64,000 nt of DNA from Actinomycetota bacterium (lineage in GTDB: Bacteria; Actinomycetota; Thermoleophilia; BMS3ABIN01). The stretch's first letter is position 1; each line of letters starts with the position of its first letter. Made by a program: the position numbers and the translations under genes. The notes below the pieces were generated by a model that made no database searches, was not told the origin of the DNA, and was given only the letters and a program-made list of their open reading frames with translations. Shown here piece after piece: positions 4,578-44,660 of the stretch. The DNA lies in NCBI GenBank assembly GCA_016235065.1, contig JACRMB010000005.1, positions 135,524-199,523 on the forward strand. The letters are read 5' to 3'.

Positions 4578-4771
4578 ATCTCCGGCCTCATTATTGCTTT
4601 GCAGGAAGGCGACCCGTAGCAGCATACTGCCCTGAGCCACGCAAGCAGAAAGTTTATCACAAGCTCTGGTGAGAGGGATGCCGGGGGATGCCAGAAATGG
4701 CTCAGCTGGTTATAAAGCAAGACCGGCAGAAATGCCGGGAGGAACGGATGCGGGCCTGAACTGCGGGAGAC

Positions 4772-6208
4772 TCAGGTCTCCATGCTTCCGAGGTTCTCGA
4801 CTTTCCATTCGCAGAGGTTGACCAGCGCCTCGCCGTCGAAGGCATCCAGGTCGATCTCCCAGCGGCCCGGGGGATCATCCTTGAGAGCTTTTACCGCGTT
4901 ACGATATTCCTTGACAGCGCCCTTGAAACTGCCAAGCCTTTCGAGGGTATTGGCAAGATGGAAATATGCCAGGCCGTGGGTGTTGTCACAATAAATCGTA
5001 CGCCGGAACGATTCGGCTGCCATCTCCAGGTCATTTTTGCGCTCATATGCGATTCCCAAAAGAAAATGGGCTTCAGCCGTGTCGCCATTGCGTTTGATGG
5101 CGTCAAGTAACAATTCGACAGCCTTGTCGTTCTCTCCGAGGTCTATGCTTGTGCGCGCCTTGCTAACCAGCGGATCCGTTCGTTCCTGTCCATCCTCAGC
5201 TGTAACGGGTTCCGCCTGCGGGTCATCGATGAGATCGGCTTCGCTCCTGGCATCACGCCTTTCTTCTGATAAGCGCCTGTCTGCAGTCACTCCCGGCGGC
5301 AGCGGTGCATCCCGCAGACGGCGGTCGGGGATAAAACGCCTGCCTTCAAGCGAACGCGGCAGAGGTTTGTTATAGATAAAAGCATCACCCATCTCCACGA
5401 GACTGTATTTAGCGGACATCTTCCATAGCGTCTCCGAGTGACCCAGGAACAGGTAGCCGCCTGGATTGAGGATATCGAAGAAGTGTTCGATCACATACTT
5501 GGCCGTCTCATGAGTGAAATAGATGATCACGTTCCGGCAGAAGACGATGTCGCAGGTGCCGAAGATGCTGATCGGCAGCGGATCGGTGACCATATTGTGG
5601 CGGACGAAATGCACCATGCGCCTGACCGGCTCCACAACCCGGTAGCCACCATCACTCTGCCGGAAGTACTTCTCCCGATGCAGGCGGTCCATCCCGTTAA
5701 GCCGGCGTTCGGCATACCAGCCCCGCTGGGCTGTGGCCAGGGCCGACTCGCTTAAGTCAGTACCCAGGATCTGGATATTCCAGGAATCCGGGTCGGGAAG
5801 GACGTCCAGAAGAGACATTGCCAGTGAATATGGTTCCTGCCCGGTGGAGCAGCCCGCACTCCAGAACCGCAAACTCCTGTAGCCATCGGCCTTCCGCCTG
5901 ACTATCTCAGGAATGACATATTTACGCAGGGCGTCGAATTGGGGCTGATTGCGGAAAAACTGTGTTTCCTGGACTGACAGATGGTCCAGCAGCCGGCGGA
6001 GTTCGACTTCCCGCTCGGGAACACTGGTCAGACGCTCATAATAGTCGGAGAGGGTATCGACGCCGATCTCGTCAGCGCGGTCCGAGAGGCCCAGTCTTAG
6101 CAGGTCGCGCTTGCCCCTGTCGAAGAATATCCCGCTTGTCTGGTTGATCAGCTTGCGGAACTTCTCGAAATCCTCCTCCGTCAACTCATATTTTTTGGCA
6201 GGGATCAT
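4772..6208 (-). CDS. CheR-type receptor methyltransferase with C-terminal TPR domain (WspC-like)
   Basis: Transfers methyl groups from SAM to glutamates on the chemoreceptor. Residues about 10-275 are CheR: the N-terminal helical part, then the SAM fold with FWSAGCSTGQEPYSLAM and the CDIVFCRNVIIYF and NPGGYLFLGHSE motifs. After a charged linker (about 285-345), residues about 350-450 form TPR-like repeats (AHFLLGIAYERKNDLEMAAESF). A CheR with TPRs is the form found as WspC in Wsp systems. Its ATG overlaps the stop of the diguanylate-cyclase gene by 4 nt (ATGA), so the two are coupled. It is the last gene of the chemosensory operon. Confidence 0.93.
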   Translation of the reverse strand: MIPAKKYELTEEDFEKFRKLINQTSGIFFDRGKRDLLRLGLSDRADEIGVDTLSDYYERLTSVPEREVELRRLLDHLSVQETQFFRNQPQFDALRKYVIPEIVRRKADGYRSLRFWSAGCSTGQEPYSLAMSLLDVLPDPDSWNIQILGTDLSESALATAQRGWYAERRLNGMDRLHREKYFRQSDGGYRVVEPVRRMVHFVRHNMVTDPLPISIFGTCDIVFCRNVIIYFTHETAKYVIEHFFDILNPGGYLFLGHSETLWKMSAKYSLVEMGDAFIYNKPLPRSLEGRRFIPDRRLRDAPLPPGVTADRRLSEERRDARSEADLIDDPQAEPVTAEDGQERTDPLVSKARTSIDLGENDKAVELLLDAIKRNGDTAEAHFLLGIAYERKNDLEMAAESFRRTIYCDNTHGLAYFHLANTLERLGSFKGAVKEYRNAVKALKDDPPGRWEIDLDAFDGEALVNLCEWKVENLGSMET

Positions 6209-7704
6209 CTCACACCGCCGACAACGACCTTGTTCTTCCCGGTTTTCTTGGCCTCATAAAGAGCCGCGTCTGCGACCTGGACCAGCTCGGTCTGGCTCTC
6301 GACTTCACACTCGGGATAGGCGGCGATGCCGAGGCTGATCGTCAGGCGAATCTTTCCCTCCGAAGCGTCGAACTCGTTATGTTCGACCGCATGTCTGATC
6401 CTCTCAGCAACAGTCTCTGCCTGTCTGAGCGAAGTCTGAGGCATCAACACTGCGAACTCCTCGCCCCCGTATCGTGCCAGGATGTCTACATCTCTTACCT
6501 GACGCTGGATGACAAGCGCCATGGACTTCAGGATGTCATCACCAACCTGATGTCCATAAGTGTCATTGATATGTTTGAAGAAATCGATATCGATCATGAT
6601 CATCGCCAGCTGTGTCTTGTAACGTTTCGTCCGGAGGAATTCCTGTTCCAGCAGTTCATAAAAATGGCGGTGGTTGAACAGGCGCGTCAGACCGTCGGTT
6701 ACTGCCAGCCGCTTAGTCCCCTCGTGCAACCTGGCGTTATCCACGACGACACTAGCGGGATATTCGAGGATGTCCAGGACCTGCCGAATATCCTCGACGA
6801 AAGCGTCAGACTTGGGGCTGTTCAATGTCAGCACCGCTATGGTCTTGCCTCTGGCCATCAGCGGGATTGTCAGCACAGAGCCGAACGAATCACATTCTGG
6901 ATGTGAGCCTTCGAGGAAGACCGGATCGGCATCTATGATCAAATCGAGCTCCTTGATCGTTGTTCCTGGTAAAAGGTATCCGGATGCCGCTTCAAACGCC
7001 TGTGACTTTGAAAGATCGAAATATTCCTTGCCGACGGCGTTATGGACATGCATTATCAGCTCCAGCTCGTCCACGAGAAGCACTGAGCATATATAACAAT
7101 CAGTCACCTTGGCGATCACAGACAGGACAGAACTCACCGTGATCGCGCAGTCTTCACTCAAGGTGTTGAGTTTGCTGATCTCGTTGATAATAGTGGCTTC
7201 GTACAGTTTGCGGTCGAGCAGGTCGTTGACTCTTGAGAGCACATCGGTCTCGTCCTGCTTTGAAAACATCGCATGGGCGATACCCTGCTTTGGATAGTCA
7301 TCGGCTGCGCCTCTTTCCTCGAGCAATTCGTGGACGCTGGCGCCCAGTCCGGTAAGCTTGAAGTCCTTGGTCACATAGCGATCTGCGCCGGTTTTCAGAC
7401 CCCAGAACTTGTCGGTCTCCTGCGAGCGGCTGGTGAGCATCACTACCGGGATATGCGCGGTGCGGCGATCGTCTTTCAGCAGCCTGCATACCTGATAACC
7501 GTTCATCCGTGGCATCTCGATATCTAGCACGATGATATCCGGATTCATGCTGAATGCCTGGGTCACAGCTTCGATGCCGTCACAGGCCAGAACGACTTCG
7601 AAGCCCTCCCTGCTGAGTACTGACTTTATTATCTGCCGCTGGGTGGGGCTGTCTTCAGCCACCAGGACCCTGTATTTATGCTCTTGTGGCTGGATTGCTT
7701 CCAT
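6205..7704 (-). CDS. Response regulator diguanylate cyclase, REC-GAF-GGDEF (WspR-like)
   Basis: Likely output of the chemosensory operon: makes c-di-GMP from two GTP. Residues 12-125 are a receiver domain with phospho-acceptor Asp61 in IIVLDIEMPRMNG. Residues about 165-325 look like a GAF domain. Residues about 330-499 are GGDEF with the active-site GGEEF at 413-417 and an inhibitory I-site RDVD at 404-407, exactly five residues upstream, so product feedback inhibition is expected. It sits between cheB and cheR, as a Wsp-type regulator would. WspR itself has REC-GGDEF without a GAF, so this is a variant. Confidence 0.95.
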   Translation of the reverse strand: MEAIQPQEHKYRVLVAEDSPTQRQIIKSVLSREGFEVVLACDGIEAVTQAFSMNPDIIVLDIEMPRMNGYQVCRLLKDDRRTAHIPVVMLTSRSQETDKFWGLKTGADRYVTKDFKLTGLGASVHELLEERGAADDYPKQGIAHAMFSKQDETDVLSRVNDLLDRKLYEATIINEISKLNTLSEDCAITVSSVLSVIAKVTDCYICSVLLVDELELIMHVHNAVGKEYFDLSKSQAFEAASGYLLPGTTIKELDLIIDADPVFLEGSHPECDSFGSVLTIPLMARGKTIAVLTLNSPKSDAFVEDIRQVLDILEYPASVVVDNARLHEGTKRLAVTDGLTRLFNHRHFYELLEQEFLRTKRYKTQLAMIMIDIDFFKHINDTYGHQVGDDILKSMALVIQRQVRDVDILARYGGEEFAVLMPQTSLRQAETVAERIRHAVEHNEFDASEGKIRLTISLGIAAYPECEVESQTELVQVADAALYEAKKTGKNKVVVGGVR

Positions 7705-7706
7705 GG

Positions 7707-8777
7707 TTACGCAAACTCCATTATCAATCGGCTGACGTCAGACAGTGGAACAACGCGGTCCACGCCGCCGAGTTTTATTGCTTCCTTGGCCATACTGAAA
7801 ATTACGGACGTATTCTTGTCCTGGGCTATCGTGCGGCCCCCACGGTCGTGGATGGCTTTGATGCCCTGGGCGCCGTCCCGTCCCATTCCTGTCAAGATAA
7901 TGCCGACGGCGCTGTTACCATATGCATCGGCTACAGACTCCAGCAGTACATCGATAGACGGTTTGTGCGGACCGGGAATCTGTCTGTCGACGAGGTGTAT
8001 ACGGCCTCCGCTGGTCACGACCATGTGAATCCCATCTGGAGCGATGACGACTTCACCCGGCTCGATAAGATGGCCGTCGCTGCCCTTGGTGATCTTCAGG
8101 CTGGTGCTGCCACTCAGCCATTCGATCAGACCGTCGGTGAATCCGGGAGCGATGTGCTGCACGATCACGATGCCGGCGCTGAAATCCACAGGGAGGCTGC
8201 ACAGGATCCTTTGCAGGGCCTGCGGCCCTCCGGTGGATGACCCGATGGCAACCAGCCTGCATCCGGACCTGGATGCTGAAGGCGGAGCAATCGATGGAAC
8301 ATCGAAAGCATGGTTCAGCAGGCGCGCTCGCGGGTGGGTGATGACCCGTACCCTCGACAGCATCTTGATCTTGGCCCTCAGATCGGCGCCGATATTATCG
8401 AAGTCTTCCAGTGAGGAGGGTGTCGGCTTACTGATGACATCTACTGCCCCGGCCCCGAGTGCCCGGGCGGCGTTGGCGGTGTTTTCCTTGTCTACAACAG
8501 AACTGACCACGAGCACCGGCACGGGATTGTAGGCCATGATGTGCTCGATGGCGGCAAGCCCGTCCATCACCGGCATGTTCACGTCCATGGTGACAAGATC
8601 CGGCTCGAGTGTCTCTACCTGCTCTATCGCCTCACGGCCGTCGCCAGCAGTGCCAACGACCCTGATGTCAGCATCCTTCTCGAGCATGCGGCAGAGCATT
8701 AGCCGGACAGTCGGAGAATCATCCGCGACCAGCACTCGCACCTTTTTTGATTCATGAAGTCTGAGGTTGGCTTCCAT
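7707..8777 (-). CDS. cheB: CheB chemoreceptor methylesterase/glutamine deamidase
   Basis: Removes methyl groups from the receptor and can deamidate glutamines, opposing CheR. Residues 12-130 are a receiver domain with Asp65 in VTMDVNMPVMDG. The esterase domain has the catalytic triad: Ser181 in IGSSTGGPQ, His208 in VIVQHIAPGF and Asp301 in LTGMGRDGAQG. At 356 residues it is full length. The stop lies 2 nt before the diguanylate-cyclase start, within one tight operon. It is presumably phosphorylated by the adjacent CheA. Confidence 0.97.
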   Translation of the reverse strand: MEANLRLHESKKVRVLVADDSPTVRLMLCRMLEKDADIRVVGTAGDGREAIEQVETLEPDLVTMDVNMPVMDGLAAIEHIMAYNPVPVLVVSSVVDKENTANAARALGAGAVDVISKPTPSSLEDFDNIGADLRAKIKMLSRVRVITHPRARLLNHAFDVPSIAPPSASRSGCRLVAIGSSTGGPQALQRILCSLPVDFSAGIVIVQHIAPGFTDGLIEWLSGSTSLKITKGSDGHLIEPGEVVIAPDGIHMVVTSGGRIHLVDRQIPGPHKPSIDVLLESVADAYGNSAVGIILTGMGRDGAQGIKAIHDRGGRTIAQDKNTSVIFSMAKEAIKLGGVDRVVPLSDVSRLIMEFA

Positions 8778-8794
8778 GATCCCCCGGGTGGCGC

Positions 8795-11224
8795 TCAGGC
8801 CACCAGTCGCCCAATGGTGTTAAGAAGATTTTGTTGATCGAAGCTTCCTTTGATGACATATGCATTGGCGCCTACATCCAGGCCGCGCTTACGATCATCA
8901 TCGCTGCTGCAGGAGGTGACCATGATCACAGGCGTATCCTTGAAATCCCTGTTTTTTCTGATCGCGGATGTCAGGTCGAAGCCGTTCATCCGTGGCATCT
9001 CGATATCGGTGACGACGCAATCTGCCGGCTGCTTCAAAAGATATTCAAGGGCGTCCTCTCCATCCACTGCGGTCTGTACCAGATAGCCGGCTGCCTCAAG
9101 TATATTGCGCTGCAGTTCGCGCACGACCAGTGAATCCTCGACGACCAGTACCGTCTTGCGGCTTTCAGACACGGGTCTGACCTCCTTCTGAATTCGTGAC
9201 TGTGTTTTTACATGGGCGCCCTTCTTGACTTCCCGCGCGAGTTCGCTGGTGTTCAATACCAGCACGGCCTCGCCGTTGCCGAGTATCGTCGCTCCTGCCA
9301 CGTTCGGCAGTTTTCCCAGGAAAGTCCCCAATGGTTTGATCACGACTTCCTGTTCACCAAGGAGCCTTCCAACTTCCAGGCCAAGGCGGAAGTTCCCGGT
9401 CTCGATCACCACGACCTGGGTCTTGCCTCCACTTCGCGAGGTATGACCACCACCAAGATGGCCAAGCAGATCGATGATTGGGATGGCGCTTTCCCTCATC
9501 AGGAAACCCTTGTGCGCTCCAAGCGACTGGATCTCCTCATCAGGAACCGCAACCATCTCCTGCACCGATACAAGCGGGATAACGAGCCTGATCTCATTCG
9601 ATTCCACCAGAAGTCCCTTGATCACAGCCAGGGTGACAGGCAGTGATACTGTAAAAATGGTTCCGGCTCCGACATCTGACTCGACCGAGACGAAGCCTTC
9701 AAGTTTTTCAATGTTGTTCTTTACTACGTCCAGTCCGACACCGCGGCCGGAGATATCCGTGACCGAGGCTGATGTAGAGAATCCCGGGCGGAATAAGAGT
9801 TCGATGGCGTCTTCTGAAGAAAGCTCGTCATGCTCGCCGATCAGGCCTTTTTCCAGCGCGACATCCCTGATCCTGGCAACATCAATTCCGGCGCCGTCAT
9901 CTTCGATCTCGATCTCTACCCTGTCACCACGCTGATAAGCTGACAGGCGCAGTTTTCCCTGTTCCGGTTTTCCCGCAGCGATGCGATCTTCGGGGGATTC
10001 GATTCCATGATCGATGCAGTTTCGGATGATGTGCATCAGTGGATCTGCAACCTGTTCGAGTATGCGCTTGTCGAGCTCGGTCTCTTCTCCGCTGGTCTCG
10101 AACCTGACCAGCTTGCCGCCTGAATTCGAGGCATCCCTGACTACCCGCGGGTATAGTCCGAAAATAGATGACAGGGGGAGCATGCGGACATGCAACGTCC
10201 GGTCCTGGAGTTCATCCAGGGCAAGTCTGCGGCTTGAGGTGTTCTCCTTGAAGCGGGACGCTGCAGCTTCGAGGCTGCCGGCGATGATGCCTGCCTGCTC
10301 CTCAGCCTGCGTGAGATGCTGGCTCAGTGAAGCTATGTGATCATCATCAGCGTTATCCTTGAGGCTCTCAGCCTGTCCTACAAGTGTACCGAAAACCTCG
10401 CGCAACTCGCGGGCTTCCCTCTGCAACACGGCAAGATCGTGGACCTGGCTTTCACTGTCGATCTGGTTGACGAGGATCTCTCCCATGAGATTAAGGAGCT
10501 TGTCGAGCCTTTCTATATTCACGCGAATCGTAGGGTCGCCATCGCGTGCTGATTTCGTCTCGCGGACAGGACCGGCAGCGCTGCATTTTAGAACAGCAGG
10601 CGCCGGCACGACTTTAAGCGCTTCTTCCTTCACTGGAATCACCGGTTCGTGCGCGGACCCTGTCTGTTCGGGTCCGAAACCAGACGAATCCGGTTCTGCC
10701 CTTGCCGCCACTAGTCCCGTATCGCCTGGCTCAGATATCGTTTCCGCCTGCATCTGTACTGGTTCAGACGGTGACGCGGCAGGTTCGATGACTAGCTCGG
10801 GGCGACTGTACTCCCGGCTGGCAGAGAAGTCATCTCCATGGTTTGCCTTTACCAGCCGCTCCAGAAGATCCGTGGCATCGGTCTCGACTGACTGCCCCGA
10901 CTCGGGATCGGGAAGCATCCGTTCGACCTGGTCGAGTGTCTCGAGCAGCAGGTCGATCAGCGCTTTCTCTACCTTGATCTGGCCTTTCTGTACTGAAGTA
11001 AGGATATCCTCAGAGCGATGCGACAACTCCCTGATGGTCTCGAATCCCATCATTCCGGCAGAACCCTTGAGAGTATGGGCTTCGCGGAAGAGCTTCTTTA
11101 TCAGGTCTTCGTTCCCAGGCTCATTTTCCATCGCCATGAGGCCTTCACCCATGTTACGAAGGCGCTCTTCAGCTTCAGCTCTGAAAGTGAGCAGAAATTC
11201 CTTGTCGGCCGACCAGTTATCCAT
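8795..11224 (-). CDS. cheA: Hybrid CheA histidine kinase with C-terminal receiver (WspE-like)
   Basis: Central kinase of the chemosensory array. In order: Hpt domain with His50 in REAHTLKGSAGMMG; a Pro/Glu-rich linker (about 120-230) with no recognisable P2 domain; a dimerisation helix region; a HATPase domain with N-box HIIRNCIDHGIE and G-box DDGAGID; a CheW-like domain (about 505-640); and a receiver with Asp740 in VVTDIEMPRMNG. The fused receiver is the WspE/FrzE arrangement. No stand-alone CheY lies in the window, so the fused receiver and the REC-GGDEF protein are the visible phosphate sinks besides CheB. Confidence 0.96.
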   Translation of the reverse strand: MDNWSADKEFLLTFRAEAEERLRNMGEGLMAMENEPGNEDLIKKLFREAHTLKGSAGMMGFETIRELSHRSEDILTSVQKGQIKVEKALIDLLLETLDQVERMLPDPESGQSVETDATDLLERLVKANHGDDFSASREYSRPELVIEPAASPSEPVQMQAETISEPGDTGLVAARAEPDSSGFGPEQTGSAHEPVIPVKEEALKVVPAPAVLKCSAAGPVRETKSARDGDPTIRVNIERLDKLLNLMGEILVNQIDSESQVHDLAVLQREARELREVFGTLVGQAESLKDNADDDHIASLSQHLTQAEEQAGIIAGSLEAAASRFKENTSSRRLALDELQDRTLHVRMLPLSSIFGLYPRVVRDASNSGGKLVRFETSGEETELDKRILEQVADPLMHIIRNCIDHGIESPEDRIAAGKPEQGKLRLSAYQRGDRVEIEIEDDGAGIDVARIRDVALEKGLIGEHDELSSEDAIELLFRPGFSTSASVTDISGRGVGLDVVKNNIEKLEGFVSVESDVGAGTIFTVSLPVTLAVIKGLLVESNEIRLVIPLVSVQEMVAVPDEEIQSLGAHKGFLMRESAIPIIDLLGHLGGGHTSRSGGKTQVVVIETGNFRLGLEVGRLLGEQEVVIKPLGTFLGKLPNVAGATILGNGEAVLVLNTSELAREVKKGAHVKTQSRIQKEVRPVSESRKTVLVVEDSLVVRELQRNILEAAGYLVQTAVDGEDALEYLLKQPADCVVTDIEMPRMNGFDLTSAIRKNRDFKDTPVIMVTSCSSDDDRKRGLDVGANAYVIKGSFDQQNLLNTIGRLVA

Positions 11225-11240
11225 GTGAATAACCGCCGAT

Positions 11241-12938
11241 CTACTTCACCCGGAATCTGGATATAGCCTGCCGCAGTTCGACAGCAGCCTGGTTGAGCTG
11301 CTCTGTCGCCGCCGCTGTCTGGCGAGCGCCGCTTGCCTGCTGCTTGCTCGCTTCGGAGATACTTGTCATAGCTACCACTACCTGCTCGCTCGCGCTCTTC
11401 TGTTGCTGCGTAGCGATGGATATCTCATTGGCAGCTCGGGTATTCTCGGCAACGACTGCCAGGATGCTCTCCAGCGACTTCCCGGCATTTGTCGCCAGCT
11501 CGACGCCGCGATCTACTTCCTTGGCGCTCTCTTCAGTTGCGAGAATAGTGCTGTTTGTCTCAGACTGGATCTCGTCGATCAGAGCCTTGATCTTGGCTGT
11601 GGCTTCGACGCTTTCTTCGGCCAGCCTTCGGACTTCACCGGCGACTACAGCAAAACCCCTTCCCTGGTCGCCTGCGCGGGCTGCTTCGACTGCGGCATTC
11701 AGGGCCAGAAGGTTGGTCTGATCGGCGATGTCGTTGATGATCTCAAGGATGGTTCCGATCCTCTGCGACTTCTCTCCAAGTGAGAGCGTCTTTTCAGCGA
11801 CCTTGTCCACCTTGTCATTGATTGACTCCATTCCCTCGAGTGTAGCCGCCACAGCCTCATGGCCCTGCCGGGCGTGATTGAGTGTCTCTTCAGCCACGCT
11901 GGCGACGGAGCCTGCGGTGTCGGCTATCTGCCTCGCGGTTCCCGCAAGCTGTTCGATGGTCGCCGTTGTCTCAGCCACTGCCGCGGACTGCTCGGCTGAT
12001 GTGCTCGCCTGCTGTTCGACGGTGGCGGAGATCTCGGCTGAAGCGGCGCTGGTCTGCTCGCCGGTCTCCATGATCTTCGTGCTGAGTTCAGTCAGGGAGT
12101 CGGTCATCTCGTTGAAGCTGGAGGCAAGGATGCCGAGTTCATCCGATGACTTTGACGGCACCCTGAGAGTCAGGTCTCCGGCGGCGATACGTTTGATCGC
12201 GCTGACCACATTGGTAAGTGGATTGATCACAGCTATCTTGAGGAGGACCTTGAGGGCAATGATTATGAATGCCAGGGTCAGAACCAGGGCGCCGATGGAG
12301 AATATCTTGTTCGACTGGATAGTCTCGTCAACCCGCTGGGTCGATGTGGAGACCAGCACCGCGCCCCGCATCGCTGAACCACCGGCATGGCACGCCTGGC
12401 AGGCAGCCTCGTTGGGTAGAGGATGGATCTCGGTCATCACCCGGTCTACTCCCTCGCCCTCATAGAACGACGCTACTTCACCGCTGCCCATGACCCGGGT
12501 CAGCTGTTCCTTGACCAGGCCACTGGCGGACCCGCCGCCATTGAATGCTTCGCCGCCGTCGACGTTGAAGACCCTTACCTGTCGAACATCACCGACATTG
12601 CGCATTCCCTCCAGCGCATCCTTGGTAAGATCGCTCTTGCCGGCAAGCATGCTTGTCCTCAGGCTGGCATGGACCGAAGTCGCCAGCGAACGGTTCATCT
12701 CTTCCTGCTGTGCGATCATATCGCTCTGCTCGTGGCTTATGCTGAGAAGCGCGTAGGTTCCAAAGCCGATTATGATCAGCAGGGATGTCAGGCCGAGTAT
12801 CTTGGCCTCAATGCTGGTTTTGAATATATTATGCAATCTTCCTCCCCCTGGAACAGCGCTTCCGGCTGTATATTCTTGGGAACGATGGATCCGCTCTCTG
12901 TCCGTGCCGTACCCCAGTGTGTCGCCTCCGACGGCCAT
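11241..12938 (-). CDS. Methyl-accepting chemotaxis protein with extracytoplasmic CXXCH motif
   Basis: Receptor of the chemosensory operon. From the chosen start there are 565 residues: TM1 about 46-66, an extracytoplasmic domain of about 140 residues, TM2 about 211-235, a HAMP domain, then the signalling hairpin with [18 protein letters not shown]. The sensor domain ends with CQACH at residues 180-184, a potential c-type haem attachment motif just before TM2. The longer frame (to 13007) overlaps cheW and lacks support. The ATG at 12936-12938 has an AGGGG ribosome site 5 nt away and starts 13 nt after the cheW stop. Confidence 0.94.
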
Positions 12939-12951
12939 GGTTACCCCTTTG

Positions 12952-13512
12952 TCATCCAGTTTGATTGGCAGCCTGGGCTGCGCGGGCTTGTGACAGTATC
13001 TCGTCAAGTTCCAGAATTCCTATAAGGGTATCCTCGAGGTTCAGCTGGGCGATCACAAAAGCTCTCTGGCTCTCGTCAAGGGTTCGGAGAGCCGGTTCCA
13101 GCTGGGATGGCGCAATATCTGCAACACGGCTGACATTGTCGACGAGGACTCCAACAATAACTCCGGACGACTCGACTATAATGATTCGAGTCTGTGAGTC
13201 TTCTTCAGCAGGAGGCATGCCCAGCATACCCGCCAGGTCGATGACTGCCACCACGCTGCCTCTGAGGTTGATCACCCCACGCACATAATCAGGAGAACCT
13301 GGTACCCAGGTAATATGGGGGACTCTGATTATCTCCCGCACCTTGCTTATCTCAACCGCAAAGGTCTCACCGGCAATCGAGAGAACGACGAATGGAACCG
13401 CGCCCTCCGGCCTTTCGATGGTTGGGGAATCAGGAAGGTTGCCCCCCTCGTTTGGCCCCTTTAAAAATGATGTATCTTGTCCGCCCATCGCCCTGGGTTG
13501 GTTGGACTGCAT
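12952..13512 (-). CDS. cheW: CheW receptor-kinase coupling protein
   Basis: Adaptor that links the receptor to CheA. After a 35-residue low-complexity leader comes a single CheW domain with [21 protein letters not shown], the conserved [12 protein letters not shown] motif and DLAGMLG. The total is 186 residues, slightly long because of the leader and the Ala/Gln-rich tail. It is the first gene of the minus-strand operon cheW-mcp-cheA-cheB-GGDEF-cheR. The 95 bases upstream, before the permease gene's stop, show no clear terminator, so read-through from the CpsB-permease pair is possible. Confidence 0.95.
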
Positions 13513-13607: not shown

Positions 13608-14747
13608 CTACTGGGTTCTGAGCGCTTTCACCGGATCGAGACGAGCTGCCCTGTACGCTGGCAGCAGCCCGGCCAGGGCGCCCAGGCCGACCGCAAAGGA
13701 TAGTGCCAGGAAAGCCAGCCTGTATGTGACTCTGAAGATCTGAACGCCGAACTGGGATGCGGTGAGGCTGTTCAGGCCGATCGTAGCGGCTATGCCTGCC
13801 AGAAGCCCGAATACTCCGGCTATCAGGCCGATAATAGCCGCCTCGGTCACGTATTCCATCAATATGGCCCGGTCTGGTGCGCCGATTGCTTTTTTCAGGC
13901 CTATCTCCCTGGTCCGTTCGGATATGGCCATAACCATCGTATTCACGGTAGCGACGCCTCCGACTACGAGAGAAATGATCGCCAGTCCAAGGACAATGGC
14001 AGTAAAAATAATGGTGCCTCGGGAGGCCTGCTCTTCGGCAGCCTTGGGTGACAGCGCTTTGACATCGGAATTCTCTTCGCTGATCCTCGCTGCTACAGCT
14101 TCAGGATCTGCGCCATCTCTCGGGATGACATTCAATACCACCGCTTCCGGCGGCAGCAGGGCGATGCGGCGCACCGTCTCAATGGGCACTATGGCGCTGT
14201 TGTTGACATACATGCCCTCGTAAGGCTTGAAAATGCCCTTGACCAGGAAATCCTGGCCTCTGAAGTTGACTATCTCCCCTGTCTCGAGGCCGTATTTCAG
14301 TGCGAGGCCATTGCCGATCAGAATGGCGGTTGTATCGCCAGATTCCAGGAATGAACCCGACTGAAGTTCGACGTTGCGGAAGCGATAAGCGGTATCTTCC
14401 GGAGGGAAGCCGGCCATGCCGGAAAAGGCACTCTGATCTTCGGCTCCGTCTCTTCCACCCAGGGCAGCGACTACAAATGGAATGGCCTTTTCGACTTCGG
14501 GCATGTTGCGGATCCGTTCCTGCGTCTCGAGTGAGATGGTACCGCTCCCCGGAGCGCCGAGTGAGAACTTGGGCTGGACATTGATGATCTCGCGCGCATC
14601 CTGTATGGAGACTTCCACCATGCGGTTCATGAACTCGGAAAGGCTCCCCATGACGGTCAGGGCGATTATGCCGATGCTGATGCCAAGCACTGTCAGGATA
14701 GTCCTGACACGCCTGCGGTTGATGTTGCGCAACGCTTCCCTGAACAA
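13608..14747 (-). CDS. MacB/FtsX-family ABC transporter permease (orphan)
   Basis: Predicted membrane subunit of a MacB-type ABC transporter. It has the family start (MFREALRNINRRRVRTILTVLGISIGI, TM1), a large extracytoplasmic domain (about 40-245), and three C-terminal membrane segments, with the coupling-helix motif MAISERTREIGLKKAIGAPDRAIL. At 379 residues it is full length. The usual ATPase (LolD/MacB-like) and periplasmic partner are absent from the window. It starts 3 nt after the CpsB-like phosphatase, so it belongs to that transcript. Substrate unknown. Confidence 0.9.
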   Translation of the reverse strand: MFREALRNINRRRVRTILTVLGISIGIIALTVMGSLSEFMNRMVEVSIQDAREIINVQPKFSLGAPGSGTISLETQERIRNMPEVEKAIPFVVAALGGRDGAEDQSAFSGMAGFPPEDTAYRFRNVELQSGSFLESGDTTAILIGNGLALKYGLETGEIVNFRGQDFLVKGIFKPYEGMYVNNSAIVPIETVRRIALLPPEAVVLNVIPRDGADPEAVAARISEENSDVKALSPKAAEEQASRGTIIFTAIVLGLAIISLVVGGVATVNTMVMAISERTREIGLKKAIGAPDRAILMEYVTEAAIIGLIAGVFGLLAGIAATIGLNSLTASQFGVQIFRVTYRLAFLALSFAVGLGALAGLLPAYRAARLDPVKALRTQ

Positions 14748-14750: not shown

Positions 14751-15536
14751 TTACCTCCTGTGCAGGAACCTTGCCAGCCGGCCTTTTCCTGAAACCTCAG
14801 GGCCGGTCTTGACCCAGCGTTCCAGTTCCTGGTTCTCCAGCACGCGCAGGGGATTATCTATAGTGACTTTACGGGCAGCAGCCTCGCCGAATTCACGCTG
14901 TAAAAGCTCGAAAGCACCTGAGAGACGAGGTTTTCTGCGTCCGGTGGAATGGGCGTCGCTGGCCACGAGGTGTATCAACCCGGCGCGCGCCATTGCCAGG
15001 CTGTTTTTCTGCAGGGTCTTGCCGAAGGTGCCGTCGATGCTGGCAGCCGTCAACTGGCAGAAGACTTCCCCGCGGCTAACCAGCCCTGCAAGACGCGAGC
15101 GGTTCTGCTGCACGAATATAGTCCTTTCCGGGTGGGCAAGGATCGGATACAGGCCGCATAGACGGACCTTGTAGACAGCCTGCGCCAGCTGATCGAATGT
15201 CGTGTCGGCTGTCTCCATGAGCAGGTAGATTCCTCCATTGATTGCCAGAGGCTTCAGGAGTTCCACGTCCCCGGCAAGGCAGGCGCTCATGGGTACTTCG
15301 GCGCCCGCAACCAGCTTCAGGGGAATTCCAGCTGCCGCCAGCTGCCCAGCCAATTGCTGTAGCCGCTCATGGCGGTCCCTGCCATCGTAGAAGCCCTCGA
15401 CGATATGTGGTGTGGCTACGACAGTCGTTATCCCGTCTTCACTTGCCAGCTTCGCCATCTCGACGCTCGTGCGGATGTCGGCTGGACCGTCGTCCACCCC
15501 TGAGATGATATGGCAGTGGGTATCGATGAAATTCAT
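14751..15536 (-). CDS. CpsB/YwqE-type PHP-fold tyrosine-protein phosphatase
   Basis: Manganese-dependent phosphatase of the capsule-regulating CpsB family, which dephosphorylates tyrosine kinases of the CpsD/Wzc type. The PHP metal-binding motifs are clear: DTHCHIISGVDDGP, VATPHIVEGFYDGR, PILAHPERT and VASDAHSTGRRKP. I chose the ATG at 15534-15536 (261 residues) with an AGGGAG ribosome site; upstream extension lacks homology. Two tyrosine kinases in the window (19583 and 33214) are the obvious targets. It is divergent from the sortase gene and precedes the permease with a 3-nt gap. Confidence 0.92.
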   Translation of the reverse strand: MNFIDTHCHIISGVDDGPADIRTSVEMAKLASEDGITTVVATPHIVEGFYDGRDRHERLQQLAGQLAAAGIPLKLVAGAEVPMSACLAGDVELLKPLAINGGIYLLMETADTTFDQLAQAVYKVRLCGLYPILAHPERTIFVQQNRSRLAGLVSRGEVFCQLTAASIDGTFGKTLQKNSLAMARAGLIHLVASDAHSTGRRKPRLSGAFELLQREFGEAAARKVTIDNPLRVLENQELERWVKTGPEVSGKGRLARFLHRR

Positions 15537-15581
15537 AATTCTCCCTGTAAGCTTCCTTGAGAATGCCAGCCCGCTCAATTA

Positions 15582-15625: not shown

Positions 15626-16294
15626 ATGCTCTCCATGAAAAAGTTCGTAAAAATAATTGGAATATTGCTCATTGTAGCCGGTCTCGGGGTTCTGATGATC
15701 GTGCCGGGTTCATGGCTGCTTGGTTACATCGCTCAGAGGGGCCTGGACAGCGAGTTCGACCAGGAGTCCGCCTCTGCAATGGCACTCAACCAGTCTGTCA
15801 TCGACAAGATGCAGGGAGCTGCCGAAGTGGAAAAACTGCGGGAGCTTGCCAGGGCTTTCCAGCGCCAGCTACGGAGCGAACAGACCATCGCCCGCCTTGA
15901 GATTCCACGTATCGGAGTGAACGCTGTGGTCGTCGAAGGGACGACTGACGGATCCCTGAGAAAGGGAGTAGGCCACATGGAGGACACTCCCCTGCCTGGA
16001 ATGGGCGATAATTTCAGTGTAGCCGGCGACCGGGTGTTGTACGGGGCGCCCTTCCTTAATCTGGACGACCTGTCCGAAGGCGATGAGATAAGGGTAAAGA
16101 CCACTTATGGCATTTTCACCTATAACGTGGTGAGCACAAAGATAACAGTGCCGGAAGATACGGAGATCCTGAAGTACCCCGGCTATGAAGCGATCACGCT
16201 GATCACCTGCGACCCTCCATGGGACACATCACACCGCCTGATCGTGCAGGGAAAGCTGGTATCGGCGGAACTCCTCGAGCAACCGGCCGGCTGA
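15626..16294 (+). CDS. Sortase (class D/E-like) with Asp at the catalytic His position
   Basis: Membrane transpeptidase that cleaves LPXTG-type sorting signals and attaches proteins to the cell wall. One N-terminal membrane anchor (about 6-34), then the sortase barrel from IARLEIPRIGVNAVVVEG. Cys195 lies in TLITCDPP and Arg204 in SHRLIV, both in the right places. The usual catalytic His motif, AGHR.TYGAPF, reads AGDRVLYGAPF here, so position 135 is Asp (codon GAC at 16028-16030). Either the enzyme is inactive or altered, or there is a base error. A plausible substrate with LPSTG is encoded at 32682. The sortase is convergent with the sugar transferase at 16310. Confidence 0.9.
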   Translation: MLSMKKFVKIIGILLIVAGLGVLMIVPGSWLLGYIAQRGLDSEFDQESASAMALNQSVIDKMQGAAEVEKLRELARAFQRQLRSEQTIARLEIPRIGVNAVVVEGTTDGSLRKGVGHMEDTPLPGMGDNFSVAGDRVLYGAPFLNLDDLSEGDEIRVKTTYGIFTYNVVSTKITVPEDTEILKYPGYEAITLITCDPPWDTSHRLIVQGKLVSAELLEQPAG

Positions 16295-16309
16295 CAGGCA
16301 CTTTCCCGC

Positions 16310-17737
16310 CTAATAGGCGCCTTTTCTCGAGAGCACTACTGGCACGGTCTTGAGGATGATCTTCAGATCGAACACTATCGACCAGTTCTCTATGTAATAC
16401 AGGTCAAGCCTGGACATCTCTTCAAAATCACGGCGGTCTCTGCCACTGACCTGCCAGAGACCGGTCACACCGGGCCGCACAGCGAGCCGCTTCAGATGAT
16501 GCGCCTGATAGCGCCCGACTTCATCGGGCAGTGGCGGCCGCGGGCCAACCATGCTCATATCGCCTTTCAGGATGTTTATCAACTGTGGTAGCTCGTCGAG
16601 GCTGGTTTTTCTGATGAATCTTCCAAAGCGGGTTATGCGAGGGTCTTCTTTCATCTTGAACATGGCGCCGGACGCTTCATTCCTGCGTTTCAGCTCTTCA
16701 CGCATCTCATGGGCTCCCACGAACATTGAGCGGAATTTCATCATCTCAAATGGCTTGCCGTCTTTTCCCAGCCTGGTCTGCCGGTAGATAGCCGGGCCTT
16801 TGGATGTTATGTGGATCATCACGAAGATGGGGATCATCAGAGGCAGGTTGAACATGAAGAGCAACAGCGCGATCACGATATCCATCAATCGCTTCAGACC
16901 GTTGTGCATGGCGTCGAGACTCGGCTGCTTCACGTTGATCATCGCCAGGCCGTCGTACTCCTGGATGTCGAGATTGCTGTAAGGATAGGCGAATGAGTCA
17001 GGGATGATGCGAACCTTGACGTCACGCCGGACTCCGTTGTTCACGATCTCTTCCATGAGCGAATGCTCCTCGGGAGCCAGCGCTATCACAACCTCTTCGA
17101 TCTTCTCCTCCTGGACCAGCCGCGGCAGATCGGCGACCTTGCCGAGTAGTGGTACATCTTCAACAGGTGAGACTGCCGCATGCTCGTCCACAAAACCGAC
17201 ACAATTGACCCCAAGCCAGTTCTTGGCCCTGAGATGCTCGAACAGGTCAACACCAGCTGGCCCGGCGCCAACGATCACCATTTTCTTTCGCCAGGCGCCG
17301 CTATCGAACTGCCGGATCTGGGTATGATGCGCTGCAAGCCTGACAACAAGCAATAATGTGACAAACACAGAGACCATGATAAGGATTCCAGGCCGTGAGA
17401 ATTCGTAGCTCTCCGAAAGGACGAAATCTTCGAGTACGAAAGCGGAGCAGACGAGCATGGCAAAGGAGATAAAGGCTGCCTTGATAACCTGGGAGACGTC
17501 CACCAGGCGGGAATATCTTTTACCGTAGACATAATCGCCATTAAGGGCGATACCGGTCAGCGTAAGTGCCACGAAAGAGCAGTAGAACATGATATCGAAC
17601 AGGGAAAGGTTGGGGCGGCTGTGCACGGAAAGGGAGGGATATGTCGATACCATGAACCACGCAAACGCGACCGCGGCCAGTCCGGCGAGGATATCGGCGA
17701 AAAGGACCAAGCGGGGCAAACTGCTCTTTCCTGACAT
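16310..17737 (-). CDS. Polyprenyl glycosylphosphotransferase (WbaP/CpsE-type initiating transferase)
   Basis: Starts polysaccharide repeat-unit synthesis by moving a sugar-1-phosphate onto undecaprenyl phosphate at the membrane. The order is four to five N-terminal membrane segments, a CoA-binding-like Rossmann domain (KMVIVGAGPAGVDLFEHL), a further membrane helix, and the catalytic domain with KFRSMFVGAHE, ITRFGRFIRKTSLDELPQL and MSMVGPRPPLP. The ATG at 17735-17737 gives 475 residues and follows a perfect AAGGAG; the longer frame adds 18 unsupported residues. It is transcribed after the polymerase-like gene at 17922, across a 184-nt gap with no gene. Confidence 0.95.
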   Translation of the reverse strand: MSGKSSLPRLVLFADILAGLAAVAFAWFMVSTYPSLSVHSRPNLSLFDIMFYCSFVALTLTGIALNGDYVYGKRYSRLVDVSQVIKAAFISFAMLVCSAFVLEDFVLSESYEFSRPGILIMVSVFVTLLLVVRLAAHHTQIRQFDSGAWRKKMVIVGAGPAGVDLFEHLRAKNWLGVNCVGFVDEHAAVSPVEDVPLLGKVADLPRLVQEEKIEEVVIALAPEEHSLMEEIVNNGVRRDVKVRIIPDSFAYPYSNLDIQEYDGLAMINVKQPSLDAMHNGLKRLMDIVIALLLFMFNLPLMIPIFVMIHITSKGPAIYRQTRLGKDGKPFEMMKFRSMFVGAHEMREELKRRNEASGAMFKMKEDPRITRFGRFIRKTSLDELPQLINILKGDMSMVGPRPPLPDEVGRYQAHHLKRLAVRPGVTGLWQVSGRDRRDFEEMSRLDLYYIENWSIVFDLKIILKTVPVVLSRKGAY

Positions 17738-17921
17738 TAGTGCTCCTTGCAGCCCCGCTTCAGACGAGTGCCGGGGCCACTCGATATTCATGCCATGCCG
17801 ATCATATCAGGGAACTGAGTTTCCCTATATGTACGGCATCACCATATTTTAACACGCGCCTGATAGTGCCATCAAAGAATGACCTGGCGTGGATGACCTT
17901 CGGAAGAATCGATGTGGGACT

Positions 17922-19496
17922 TTAGATTACCGCTGCCGGCTCAGTCGCGCGCGTCTGACTACCGTCAATTCGACCAGAACGCGGCAGCATCCTGGGACGT
18001 GGCCAACCGAGCATTATTCCGGAAAAGTAGAAGAAAGCCATTGTGAGCGCGAACATGTTCCAGTCCCAATCGTAGGATGCGTGGATCAGGTAGATAACCA
18101 GCATCGAGAGGATCGCTGCAGCAAGGCTGCGCTCCCAGCGATCTTTCTGGCGGCAGAGTGTGATCGTGGAAAAAGTCATTGCCACTGTGATGAACGCCAT
18201 GCCCAACAGGAAACCGACGATGCCGAACTCGGCTAAAAGCTGGAACGGATGGCTATGGGGCTGCTTCACAAAAATCGAGCTGCTGTCGCGCTTCAGCAGG
18301 TGTACAAGCGGAAAGCTCTGCCCACCCGATCCCAAGTAAGGATGTTCCTCCCAGCTTTCGAGTGACTCTTCCCATAATTTCCAGCGCCCCGAAGAGCCCA
18401 TCTCAAGCAGCCGTCCGGTTCCTTCGTTACTGGGAGCTCCATATCTCAGGTCGTGATATGCCTGCCGCGACCAGTCACTGAACGAAGGTTTGGAAGACGT
18501 GAACCAGATGGCGCCTCCAAGCGCCAGCAATATCACTGAAGCAAGGATCAGCGCTCCCGAGCCTTTCGACAACATCTGAGGGACTTTTACCTGGCGACCC
18601 AATATGATGCATATTGTGAAGATGAGACCTGCGGCGATCACGGATGCAACCACATACCACCTCAACGTGGATGCAGCTACAATCCTCTCGCTCATAGGGA
18701 CACGGTCTTTCATCAGCGCGTCCTGGCCACTGCTCCACATTGCGATGAGAACAGTGGGGACAAGTGACAGAAGCATGACTCCAAAGCTGCGCAGCCTTAC
18801 AGTGGAAACTGAAAAATAGACGATAAGCCCCAGGATCAGCGCGAGTGTTGCCCCTCGTGAGAGCGTGAAGAACAGACAGGTCAGAAGCAGCGGTGAAGCC
18901 ATCGCCGAGATTATTCGCAAGGACCAGTGGAATGTACGATCAGAAGACAGGTATATCGCAAGAACGAATCCCATGGCCATGAGAAGGCCCATCGCATTGA
19001 CATATCCTATCGGCACGGCGATCCGGCCCATCTCGTCAAGGTTCTCTACGACAGACGGGAAGGTCTTCGGCCCGAGACCATAGACGGATGCTGCGGTGGC
19101 GATCGCCAGCAGGAGGATGACTGCGATTCGGCGGCACAGGAGATGCCTGCCGGCTGTGACTCCCAGCACGAAAATCGCTACATATCCCCCGGTCCGATTG
19201 AATTCGATCAGGGACTGGTCTGCTGAGATGGACCATGAGATCGACAGGCCGGTCCAGATCCAGAATGCCACCGCCAGCCCCAGCAGGGAAAGCTGCACTG
19301 CATCCCAGTCCCGATAAAACTCTTCCCTTTCTGAGACCAGGAGCATAGCCAGGCATAGCCAGGCACCCACCACGCAAAGCGTCATCGCGTTCGGGAAATA
19401 GCCTCCGTCGGCGAAAACGGCAAAGGCTTCTATCGCCATGACTATCAAAACCCCGAGGAAAGCCATAATCGGGAACGAAAAGGATATTGCTCTCAT
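17922..19496 (-). CDS. O-antigen ligase/polymerase-family membrane protein
   Basis: Multi-pass inner-membrane protein of the O-antigen ligase (Wzy_C) family, expected to polymerise or transfer lipid-linked glycan units outside the membrane. About a dozen hydrophobic segments are visible. Family-like motifs are LFFTLSRGATLAL and, in the large loop, EEHPYLGSGGQSF with HSHPFQLLAEFGIVGF. It is 524 residues from the ATG at 19494-19496; the TTG three codons earlier is an alternative. It is divergent from the Wzz-kinase at 19583. A second family member lies at 21260, and sequence alone does not tell which is polymerase and which is ligase. Confidence 0.87.
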   Translation of the reverse strand: MRAISFSFPIMAFLGVLIVMAIEAFAVFADGGYFPNAMTLCVVGAWLCLAMLLVSEREEFYRDWDAVQLSLLGLAVAFWIWTGLSISWSISADQSLIEFNRTGGYVAIFVLGVTAGRHLLCRRIAVILLLAIATAASVYGLGPKTFPSVVENLDEMGRIAVPIGYVNAMGLLMAMGFVLAIYLSSDRTFHWSLRIISAMASPLLLTCLFFTLSRGATLALILGLIVYFSVSTVRLRSFGVMLLSLVPTVLIAMWSSGQDALMKDRVPMSERIVAASTLRWYVVASVIAAGLIFTICIILGRQVKVPQMLSKGSGALILASVILLALGGAIWFTSSKPSFSDWSRQAYHDLRYGAPSNEGTGRLLEMGSSGRWKLWEESLESWEEHPYLGSGGQSFPLVHLLKRDSSSIFVKQPHSHPFQLLAEFGIVGFLLGMAFITVAMTFSTITLCRQKDRWERSLAAAILSMLVIYLIHASYDWDWNMFALTMAFFYFSGIMLGWPRPRMLPRSGRIDGSQTRATEPAAVI

Positions 19497-19582
19497 TCTT
19501 TGCAAGATGGTGGAATTATATATAAAATCCGTTTTGCTATTTTATGTTCAGATCAAGCTAACCAGGAGTTGAACCTCACTAA

Positions 19583-21154
19583 ATGGCAACCCCCTCTCCT
19601 TCGTCTGGAAACTCGGATTTTCGGGAGAATCTGAACATAGTCTGGCGACGCAAATGGATACTCTTCACGTGCATTTTGCTGATCACCGCGATAGCTGTGA
19701 TCGCCACCATAATCTTTAATACTCCCAGCTATCAGTCCTCAGCCGAGCTGCTGCAGCGGCGCTCGGGCCTTGACAAGGTCCTGCTGGGGTCGGATGTCTT
19801 ACAGCAGTCGAACTTCTCCCCCGAGAGGAACATGCAGACCGCGGCGGAGCTGGTCAAATCGCCGGAGGTCGTCTCCAAGGTCGAAGAGAGGCTTGGAGAT
19901 GAGCTTGACGGGCGCAATCCGGCCTTGATGATCAGTGTCTCGCTGATAGACAAGACAGATATCATGAAACTCGTCGCCACCGACGGAGACCCCCAGGTCG
20001 CAGCTGATGTCGCGAATGCATTTGCAGTTGAATACATGGCCTGGAGACAGAAAGTCGACCGCGAAGTCCTCAGCCAGGCCAGGCTGCCACTGGAAGCTCA
20101 GATCAACAGTATCCCCGCAGAACAGCGGGAATCGTCGACAACTTACAGAGTACTCGCCGACAAGCTTGAGACTGTCAAGCTGCTGGAGGCCATGCAGACC
20201 GGGAATCTCGAAATGGTCAAGCCCGCAACAGTTTCACAGACTGCGATTGCCAGAAATCCTGTCACGGTCGGGGTAGTCGCCTTTTTTATAAGCATCATTG
20301 TGGGCGTCGGTCTTATCTTCCTGATCGAACGCCTCGACACCAAGATCAGAAGCACTGATGAGATCACCAGGAGGATCGACAAGCCCATCATCTCTACGAT
20401 CCCCCGTATCAATTCAGGATATGGATCCATGGTAACACTGGAAAATCCCTCAGGCGCCTGTTCAGAGGCATACCGGCTGCTTAAAACAAATCTCAGTTAT
20501 ATCGAACCTGACAATGATGTGAAGTCGATCATGATAACCAGCCCGGAGCCAGGTGAGGGTAAATCAACCACTATCGCAAACCTTGCCATTACCATGGCCA
20601 GAGCCGGACAGCGGGTTATCGTGATGGAAGCCGACCTCAGACGCCCCATGCTCTCCCACTACCTTGGCCTCGAGAATTCAATTGGACTCACGAACGCGAT
20701 ATCGGGAGCGTTTACCCTGAGAGAAACGCTTCAGGAGATCGAAGCCCAGGACCTGATCATCCGGAGTACGATCGGCGATCAGAGTAGCGGTTCAGGAATG
20801 GGAGTCAACAGCCTTAATGGCGTAAAACCTGTTTACTGCGTGACGTCCGGGCCGACGCCTCCAAATCCTGGTGAGATGGCTGCGTCTGACAGAATGGCAG
20901 AATTGATCGCGGAAGCCAGTGATTACGCTGATATCGTACTGGTTGACGCCCCGCCGCTGGGTGCTGTCGGTGACGCCGCAAGTATGGCAACCAAGGTTGA
21001 CGGAGTCCTGATCGTGATGAAGCTCGCTCAGACATCAAGAAAGTCATTCGGTTTCATCGAGAGTTTCATGGAGACCGTTCCCTGCAATGTCCTCGGACTG
21101 GTCGTTACCAATGCTGGTTCCTCGAGTGCCTATGAAGGCAGCTATTATTATTAG
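19583..21154 (+). CDS. Fused chain-length determinant and BY-type tyrosine kinase (Wzc-like)
   Basis: Controls polysaccharide chain length and export through cycles of tyrosine autophosphorylation. The N-terminal Wzz domain has membrane segments at about 24-46 and 230-252. The cytoplasmic kinase has Walker A SPEPGEGKST (near 320), Walker A' VIVMEADLRRPML and Walker B IVLVDAPPLGAVGDA. The C-terminus ends in a tyrosine cluster, YEGSYYY, the usual autophosphorylation tail. A single-chain layout is common in Gram-negatives; a split pair also occurs in this locus (33214-34624). The likely partner phosphatase is the CpsB-like gene at 14751. Confidence 0.94.
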   Translation: MATPSPSSGNSDFRENLNIVWRRKWILFTCILLITAIAVIATIIFNTPSYQSSAELLQRRSGLDKVLLGSDVLQQSNFSPERNMQTAAELVKSPEVVSKVEERLGDELDGRNPALMISVSLIDKTDIMKLVATDGDPQVAADVANAFAVEYMAWRQKVDREVLSQARLPLEAQINSIPAEQRESSTTYRVLADKLETVKLLEAMQTGNLEMVKPATVSQTAIARNPVTVGVVAFFISIIVGVGLIFLIERLDTKIRSTDEITRRIDKPIISTIPRINSGYGSMVTLENPSGACSEAYRLLKTNLSYIEPDNDVKSIMITSPEPGEGKSTTIANLAITMARAGQRVIVMEADLRRPMLSHYLGLENSIGLTNAISGAFTLRETLQEIEAQDLIIRSTIGDQSSGSGMGVNSLNGVKPVYCVTSGPTPPNPGEMAASDRMAELIAEASDYADIVLVDAPPLGAVGDAASMATKVDGVLIVMKLAQTSRKSFGFIESFMETVPCNVLGLVVTNAGSSSAYEGSYYY

Positions 21155-21259
21155 GACCGGGAAACTCTGTTCCGGGCACATATTAATTCCAATTTGCCAA
21201 ACGGTGTTTGTCGGCGCGATGTCTAGGCTGGTTATCACAGATGAACCTGGAAGCCAAGG

Positions 21260-22732: not shown

Positions 22733-22757
22733 TGACGACTCCGGACGCAAGACTATT

Positions 22758-23777: not shown

Positions 23778-23782
23778 CCACG

Positions 23783-26106: not shown

Positions 26107-26137
26107 AAGTCACTCAGCAGATTCGCAGGTCTTTTTG

Positions 26138-28098: not shown

Positions 28099-28100
28099 AT

Positions 28101-29258: not shown

Positions 29259-29269
29259 AGACGTATAGC

Positions 29270-29869: not shown

Positions 29870-29957
29870 ATGGTACAGGACGCCCGTTGAAATATGGTTT
29901 ACAAACACCCACTACCCCACTTAGACTGGTCATTCAAAGCCGACTCAGGATGTCAAA

Positions 29958-33936: not shown

Positions 33937-33937
33937 A

Positions 33938-41494: not shown

Positions 41495-41497
41495 GCG

Positions 41498-41950: not shown

Positions 41951-42077
41951 TCCATACTCCTGACTACGATTTCAGGCTTTCGATAGAGGTTCGCCGCAAC
42001 CCCTGCATTCACCTTCAAAATATCCGCCCTACTCCGCATTGAGCTGTATTCCCGGATCTCTCTTCAATCCATCACCA

Positions 42078-43496: not shown

Positions 43497-43602
43497 GATA
43501 TCTTCCTCCAGTAAGGCAAGTATTCCAGTATTTCCATGGTCCGATCAGCTATATATTGAATCCCTATCAAATTTGTCTCTTTTCAAACACAAGGAAATAG
43601 CT

Positions 43603-43608: not shown

Positions 43609-43669
43609 ACATTTAATTTACTCAAGCTATCGGTGCGGCACCCACACGCTGCCGAAAGCGAGGTACATT

Positions 43670-44647: not shown

Positions 44648-44660
44648 GCAATCTCCTCGA

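What the first reader, a model, noticed from the sequence alone, without database searches (positions are those of the whole stretch)
4772..13512. Wsp-like chemosensory operon with c-di-GMP output beside an exopolysaccharide locus
Seen: cheW, one MCP, CheA with a fused receiver, CheB, a REC-GAF-GGDEF protein with intact GGEEF and I-site, and CheR with TPRs, all in one tight minus-strand operon with no cheY, cheC, cheD or flagellar gene. Known: these special parts (CheR-TPR, CheA-REC, REC-GGDEF) are those of Pseudomonas Wsp, which makes c-di-GMP on surface contact. Inference: in this probably actinobacterial genome the system drives the adjacent EPS and surface-protein genes. The GAF insert and the single CheW differ from classic Wsp.
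Basis: partly seen in the sequence, partly recalled or inferred. Interest (0 to 1): 0.7.

Follow-up and report, generated by a model that had tools for sequence, protein, structure and literature searches.

The report
Heme-sensing chemosensory operon making c-di-GMP
A non-swimming actinobacterium uses a chemotaxis-type signalling set, headed by a receptor predicted to carry a covalently bound heme outside the membrane, probably to turn outside redox state (or a gas such as nitric oxide) into the biofilm messenger c-di-GMP; the parts are known, but this combination and its presence in this lineage appear undescribed.

Summary
The operon is real and complete: cheW, MCP, CheA-REC, CheB, REC-GAF-GGDEF and CheR-TPR, with one gene order in relatives of the same family. 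It is the only chemosensory system in the 2.37 Mb genome: one MCP, CheW domains only here, no FliF. Architecture and CheA phylogeny agree with an 'alternative cellular function' pathway of Wsp type.

The MCP's extracytoplasmic domain is PF21563, homologous to the heme-c sensors GSU0582/GSU0935 of Geobacter, not the 4HB domain of WspA. Its CxxCH and the methionine matching axial ligand Met60 are invariant in 13 of 13 family MCPs. Cytochrome-c assembly genes are present. The best reading is therefore a redox-switched (or NO-binding) receptor that sets a diguanylate cyclase, not a surface sensor.

The EPS link is unproven. Adjacency holds in 8 genomes of 5 genera and is lost in 5 others, and the genome has no PilZ. 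One c-di-GMP receptor candidate is a MshEN-PilB.

A second heme-c sensor, a histidine kinase, sits beside a REC-HD-GYP phosphodiesterase in 15 of 16 family genomes. Two heme-c sensors may thus control synthesis and breakdown of c-di-GMP. I rate it a new variant of a known kind.

The parts
12952..13512 (-). cheW, single-domain coupling protein
   Evidence: PF01584 E 8.6e-37
11241..12938 (-). MCP, 565 aa: TM1 about 47-67, extracytoplasmic PF21563 heme-c sensor with CQACH at 180-184 and Met97, TM2 about 211-234, HAMP, MCP hairpin of 40H-like length; no CheR-tethering pentapeptide (ends SRFRVK)
12387..12401 (-). CxxCH heme-c attachment motif CQACH (MCP residues 180-184)
   Evidence: translation; conserved in 13/13 family MCPs
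12648..12650 (-). Met97 codon of MCP, aligned with axial ligand Met60 of GSU0935/GSU0582
   Evidence: ligand role from PMC8396549
8795..11224 (-). CheA-REC: Hpt, dimerisation, ATPase, CheW domain, C-terminal receiver; no P2 domain found
7707..8777 (-). CheB (REC + methylesterase)
   Evidence: NCBIfam CheB above cut-off
6205..7704 (-). REC-GAF-GGDEF diguanylate cyclase response regulator; GGEEF and I-site RDVD
4772..6208 (-). CheR-TPR methyltransferase
4723..4738 (-). terminator-like stem-loop after cheR
   Evidence: sites not in excess over shuffles
13608..14747 (-). MacB/FtsX-type permease between cheW and cpsB, seen only in this genome and G005
14751..15578 (-). CpsB/CapC-like phosphatase, first gene of the neighbouring surface-polysaccharide locus
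   Evidence: PF19567; conserved neighbour in 8 genomes
15626..31943 (.). sortase and exopolysaccharide locus (WcaJ-like, Wzy, Wzz-BY-kinase, glycosyltransferases, CapD-like)

Best explanation
This is a self-contained ACF-type (Wsp-like) chemosensory pathway whose only receptor is a membrane MCP with an extracytoplasmic c-type heme. I infer that a change in the heme's redox and ligation state (His/Met to His/open, as in the Geobacter homologs) is passed through HAMP to the CheW-CheA array. CheA-REC would phosphorylate the receiver of the REC-GAF-GGDEF protein, which makes c-di-GMP. CheR-TPR and CheB set receptor methylation and the CheA receiver tunes or sinks phosphate. Shown here: genes, domains, intact catalytic motifs, conserved heme and Met positions, the heme-c assembly genes, and that it is the genome's only chemosensory system. 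Inferred: covalent heme attachment, the sign of the response, c-di-GMP production and its targets (surface polysaccharide or MshEN-PilB type IV pili).
For: Domains and motifs. The MCP sensor matches PF21563 above cut-off and PDB chains 3b47/3b42 (E 3e-8 and 2e-7) with CxxCH aligned and Met97 aligned to Met60. CQxCH and the SML motif are invariant in 13/13 family MCPs. TM helices flank the domain. ResB and CcsA-type cytochrome c assembly genes and multiheme cytochromes are present in the genome; ResB is in all 15 family genomes searched and not above cut-off in the other families of the class searched. Single MCP per genome and no FliF in the family. Gene order conserved. CheA is distinct from the class's flagellar CheAs (AU p 0.018). 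Published behaviour of GSU0582/GSU0935.
Against: No biochemistry. A preprint finds one signalling sCache_heme protein to behave as an NO sensor, and GSU0582/GSU0935 also bind NO and CO, so redox is not the only reading. The g3 relatives have GGEEI/GGEEM instead of GGEEF, so cyclase activity may not be kept everywhere. The GAF domain may add a second input. The structure prediction of the sensor failed (pLDDT 44).
Confidence: 0.6

Rival explanations
1. Same pathway, but the heme-c receptor senses nitric oxide (or CO) rather than redox state, so the operon turns NO into a change of c-di-GMP.
For: sCache_heme domains fused to signalling modules are proposed to be NO sensors, on one tested protein with slow NO release; GSU0582/GSU0935 bind NO by displacing Met60.
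Against: The Met ligand position is kept in all 13 family MCPs, as in the redox-switching Geobacter sensors; whether the preprint's sensor has that Met was not checked. No denitrification or NO-reductase gene was looked for or seen here.
Confidence: 0.22
2. A true Wsp-like surface-contact sensor in which the heme domain is incidental and the receptor responds to the membrane or to contact, activating EPS synthesis.
For: Same architecture as Wsp; WspA chimeras with foreign sensor domains still respond to surfaces; the EPS locus is adjacent in 8 genomes.
Against: CxxCH and Met are invariant in 13/13, which an incidental domain would not need; no PilZ; EPS adjacency lost in 5 genomes.
Confidence: 0.1
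3. The pathway serves type IV pilus motility or attachment rather than polysaccharide: c-di-GMP acts through the MshEN-PilB ATPase.
For: One MshEN protein, a PilB-like ATPase beside PilT- and PilC-like genes; no PilZ.
Against: The first MshEN-like repeat lacks its usual Arg and the second its usual final Gln (sequence, motif from my own knowledge); no pil gene in the operon. It is an alternative output and does not compete with the input reading.
Confidence: 0.3

Closest known systems
Pseudomonas Wsp system (WspA-F, WspR)
   Same: ACF type; CheA-REC without P2; CheR-TPR; CheB; REC-GGDEF cyclase output; dedicated long-class MCP
   Different: Heme-c receptor domain instead of 4HB; one CheW, not two; GAF inserted in the cyclase; different gene order; actinobacterial host without a FliF gene
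Geobacter sulfurreducens heme-c MCPs GSU0582 / GSU0935 (PDB 3B47, 3B42; PF21563)
   Same: Homologous extracytoplasmic heme-c sensor, HAMP, MCP; same CxxCH and Met60 positions
   Different: The published model links them to regulation of cell movement; here the receptor is encoded with its own cyclase pathway
sCache_heme domain family (Deshpande et al., PMC12889525)
   Same: Extracytoplasmic CxxCH sensor fused to MCP and histidine kinase; GSU0582/0935 are members
   Different: Reported rare or absent in Actinomycetota; here nearly universal in one actinobacterial family
Geobacter Esn electrode sensing network (EsnABCD)
   Same: Class 40H MCP, CheW and CheA feeding a GGDEF protein, linked to redox-dependent surface growth
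   Different: EsnA has a cytoplasmic GAF and no periplasmic domain, and the genes are scattered
Nitrospinia loci L051/L063 and Nitrospinae locus L080
   Same: CheA-REC, CheB, CheR-TPR; L051/L063 have PF11845 heme-motif MCPs; L080 has the same gene order with a REC-GGDEF protein of the same layout
   Different: L051/L063 output is REC-GAF-PAS-class III nucleotide cyclase; L080 MCP has no CxxCH

Membership tests
ACF-class chemosensory pathway | Multidomain response regulator (REC fused to an output domain) | tested here: met
   REC-GAF-GGDEF
ACF-class chemosensory pathway | CheR-TPR in the cluster | tested here: met
   association with ACF from PMC3447774
ACF-class chemosensory pathway | CheA falls in the ACF class by class HMM | not testable with these tools
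   No MiST class HMMs; proxy tree separates it from the class's flagellar CheAs, exact sister unresolved
ACF-class chemosensory pathway | No flagellar apparatus served | tested here: met
   FliF absent in own genome and 18 family members; other flagellar genes not searched
Wsp system | CheA with C-terminal REC and no P2 domain | tested here: met
   trait in PMC5907407
Wsp system | REC-GGDEF output with active site and I-site | tested here: met
   extra GAF domain
Wsp system | WspA-type 4HB sensor domain | tested here: not met
   PF21563 instead
Wsp system | Two CheW proteins (WspB, WspD; own knowledge) | tested here: not met
   One free-standing CheW in the genome
Wsp system | Activation by surface contact | not testable with these tools
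   needs experiment
PF21563 / sCache_heme sensor | CxxCH motif in an extracytoplasmic domain between two TM helices | tested here: met
PF21563 / sCache_heme sensor | Profile and structure-sequence match to known members | tested here: met
   PF21563 40.6 bits vs cut-off 27; 3b47, 3b42
PF21563 / sCache_heme sensor | Covalently bound heme | not testable with these tools
   needs heme stain or spectra
c-di-GMP cyclase (versus hybrid cGAMP GGDEF) | Asp at the substrate-recognition position rather than Ser (own knowledge) | tested here: met
   NDxxGHxxGD in 13/13

The most novel reading that the evidence does not exclude
This actinobacterial family controls c-di-GMP with two opposed extracytoplasmic heme-c sensors: a heme-c chemoreceptor pathway driving a GGDEF cyclase (this operon), and a heme-c hybrid histidine kinase encoded beside a REC-HD-GYP phosphodiesterase. 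If the two hemes differ in midpoint potential or ligand affinity, they would set a redox (or NO) window for surface life.
Probability: 0.35. Interest if true: 0.75.

Novelty: new variant of a known kind. Interest (0 to 1): 0.58.

Why it matters
Heme-c MCPs have been known structurally since 2008, but in the papers read here their downstream pathways are only modelled. Here a heme-c receptor is genetically locked to one kinase and one cyclase in a small genome with no other MCP, so input, phosphotransfer and output can be reconstituted and tested together. It extends heme-c Cache sensors and CheR-TPR/ACF pathways into Actinomycetota, where they were reported as rare or absent, and suggests that extracytoplasmic redox state or NO directly sets c-di-GMP.

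Tried and rejected
(1) Flagellar chemotaxis: rejected; no FliF in the family, one MCP, and a CheA unlike the class's flagellar CheAs. (2) PilZ receptor near the EPS genes: none in own genome or in the 11 family members searched. (3) Hybrid cGAMP-type GGDEF, as for Esn: rejected on the conserved Asp. (4) Co-transcription with cpsB: not supported; cheW starts 83 bases or more after the cpsB stop in the relatives measured. (5) AlphaFold model of the sensor with three sequences: failed, pLDDT 44, not used, and no fold search was run. (7) Exact sister of the CheA clade: unresolved. (8) A literature search for this lineage with c-di-GMP/chemotaxis found nothing specific.

Full report
1. Observation. 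On the minus strand, in transcription order: cheW (12952-13512), MCP, CheA-REC (8795-11224), CheB (7707-8777), REC-GAF-GGDEF (6205-7704), CheR-TPR (4772-6208). Spacings are 13, 16, 17, 2 and -4 bases, so this is one operon. The listed TTG start of the MCP (13007) is not the likely one: an ATG at 12938 follows AAAGGGG and gives 565 aa, close to the reading frames of most relatives (560-578 aa). Catalytic and phosphoacceptor motifs checked in all four enzymes are conserved in the family.

2. The MCP's extracytoplasmic part is PF21563, named for class 40H receptors (40.6 bits, cut-off 27). By sequence it matches two solved structures, 3b47 and 3b42, the heme-c sensor domains of GSU0582 and GSU0935. 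The alignment puts CQACH on their CxxCH. Counting from the published ligands (Cys140, Cys143, His144, Met60; PMC8396549), MCP Met97 falls on Met60, the methionine that binds the heme iron in the reduced state and is released on oxidation. CQxCH and the Ser-Met-Leu motif are invariant in 13 of 13 family MCPs. Hydrophobic helices at about 47-67 and 211-234 flank the domain.

3. Can the cell make it? The genome carries ResB and a CcsA-type assembly protein next to multiheme cytochromes. ResB is found in all 15 family genomes searched, and not above cut-off in the 10 genomes of other families of the class.

4. Whole-genome context. G000 (2.37 Mb, 98.9% complete) has one MCP, CheW domains only in this cheW and CheA, no FliF, no PilZ, no EAL and 20 GGDEF matches. 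A type IV pilus locus has a MshEN-PilB. The two repeats of its c-di-GMP motif are each imperfect (sequence; motif from my own knowledge).

5. Distribution. An orthologous CheA or operon fragment is seen in 15 of 19 family genomes including this one. Three of the four without it are 78-89% complete; one (G009) is listed as 100% complete. Gene order is the same wherever the contig allows it to be read. In 396 genomes drawn across the phylum, PF21563 occurs in 11, seven of them in this family. The closest named contigs are 'Thermoleophilia bacterium' MAGs.

6. EPS neighbourhood. cpsB, with sortase and polysaccharide genes where the contig reaches them, flanks cheW in 8 genomes of 5 genera. In 5 genomes of genus g3 the operon lies elsewhere; in the two whose flanks were annotated or matched it lies between polA/ribosomal-protein-S1-like genes and uvrB. 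These five form one clade of the CheA tree (100), so a single relocation suffices. The same five have GGEEI instead of GGEEF. Adjacency is thus conserved but not obligatory, and cheW starts 83 bases or more after cpsB in the relatives measured.

7. Phylogeny. Family CheAs form a 100/100 clade that does not join the flagellar CheAs of the same class (holding them together is rejected, AU p 0.018; the group was named after a first tree had been seen). The sister is unresolved. Nearby branches include Nitrospinia loci L051/L063, whose MCPs carry the related heme domain PF11845 and whose regulator ends in a class III nucleotide cyclase, and L080, with the same gene order and a REC-GGDEF protein of the same layout but no heme motif. 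Horizontal acquisition is plausible, not shown.

8. Mechanism. Best reading: heme redox/ligation state -> HAMP -> CheW/CheA-REC -> REC-GAF-GGDEF -> c-di-GMP, with CheR-TPR/CheB adaptation. For Geobacter, published spectroscopy supports a redox-linked spin and ligand switch, with NO and CO also bound. A 2026 preprint argues that signalling heme-Cache domains are NO sensors, on one tested protein. The conserved Met makes me favour redox, but NO is a serious rival. Surface contact, as in Wsp, is not supported but not excluded.

9. A second heme-c sensor. A hybrid histidine kinase with the same heme domain (G000:C2, L144:6284-8365) has CxxCH and the Met-Leu pair in 16 of 16 family members examined. 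It lies beside a REC-HD-GYP protein (HDxGK and HQExxDGxGYP present) in 15 of 16. The exception, G009, also lacks the che operon. Since the genus has no EAL match, HD-GYP proteins are the expected phosphodiesterases. This suggests paired heme-c control of making and breaking c-di-GMP; it is an inference from gene neighbourhood.

10. Verdict. Confirmed observation; interpretation partly right (ACF/Wsp-like, c-di-GMP output) and partly to be replaced (heme-c input rather than surface contact; EPS target unproven). New variant of a known kind.

Noticed in passing
L144:4816-9833 (G000:C2 about 40815-45832): Second heme-c sensor (hybrid HK, PF21563, CQHCH) with a REC protein, another HK and a REC-HD-GYP; conserved beside REC-HD-GYP in 15 of 16 family genomes.
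   Followed up: partly
L133, L134, L136, L138, L140 (DGC genes): The cyclase signature is GGEEI, and GGEEM in L135; the five GGEEI genomes are those whose operon moved away from the EPS locus.
   Followed up: partly
L051:3233-13611 and L063:7495-18439: Nitrospinia chemosensory clusters with PF11845 heme-motif MCPs, CheR-TPR, and a REC-GAF-PAS-class III nucleotide cyclase as likely output.
   Followed up: partly
L066:2056-8520, L093: Gammaproteobacterial cluster pairing a protoglobin MCP (L066) with CheA-REC and a REC-REC-GGDEF protein: a globin-based parallel; L093 has a similar layout.
   Followed up: no
window 13608-14747: MacB/FtsX permease inserted between cheW and cpsB, seen only in this genome and close relative G005.
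   Followed up: no
L171:4663-11612 (G000:C3): Five- and six-heme cytochromes with weak MtrC/MtrF-domain matches beside ResB/CcsA and an NHL-repeat protein; the cytochrome-ResB pairing recurs in relatives.
   Followed up: partly
window 33214-34624: A second Wzz/BY-kinase-like pair (CpsC/CpsD-like) downstream of the EPS locus; in L135 its homologs sit next to wcaJ.
   Followed up: no
window 32520-33125: 201-aa ORF without any Pfam match beside the EPS locus.
   Followed up: no
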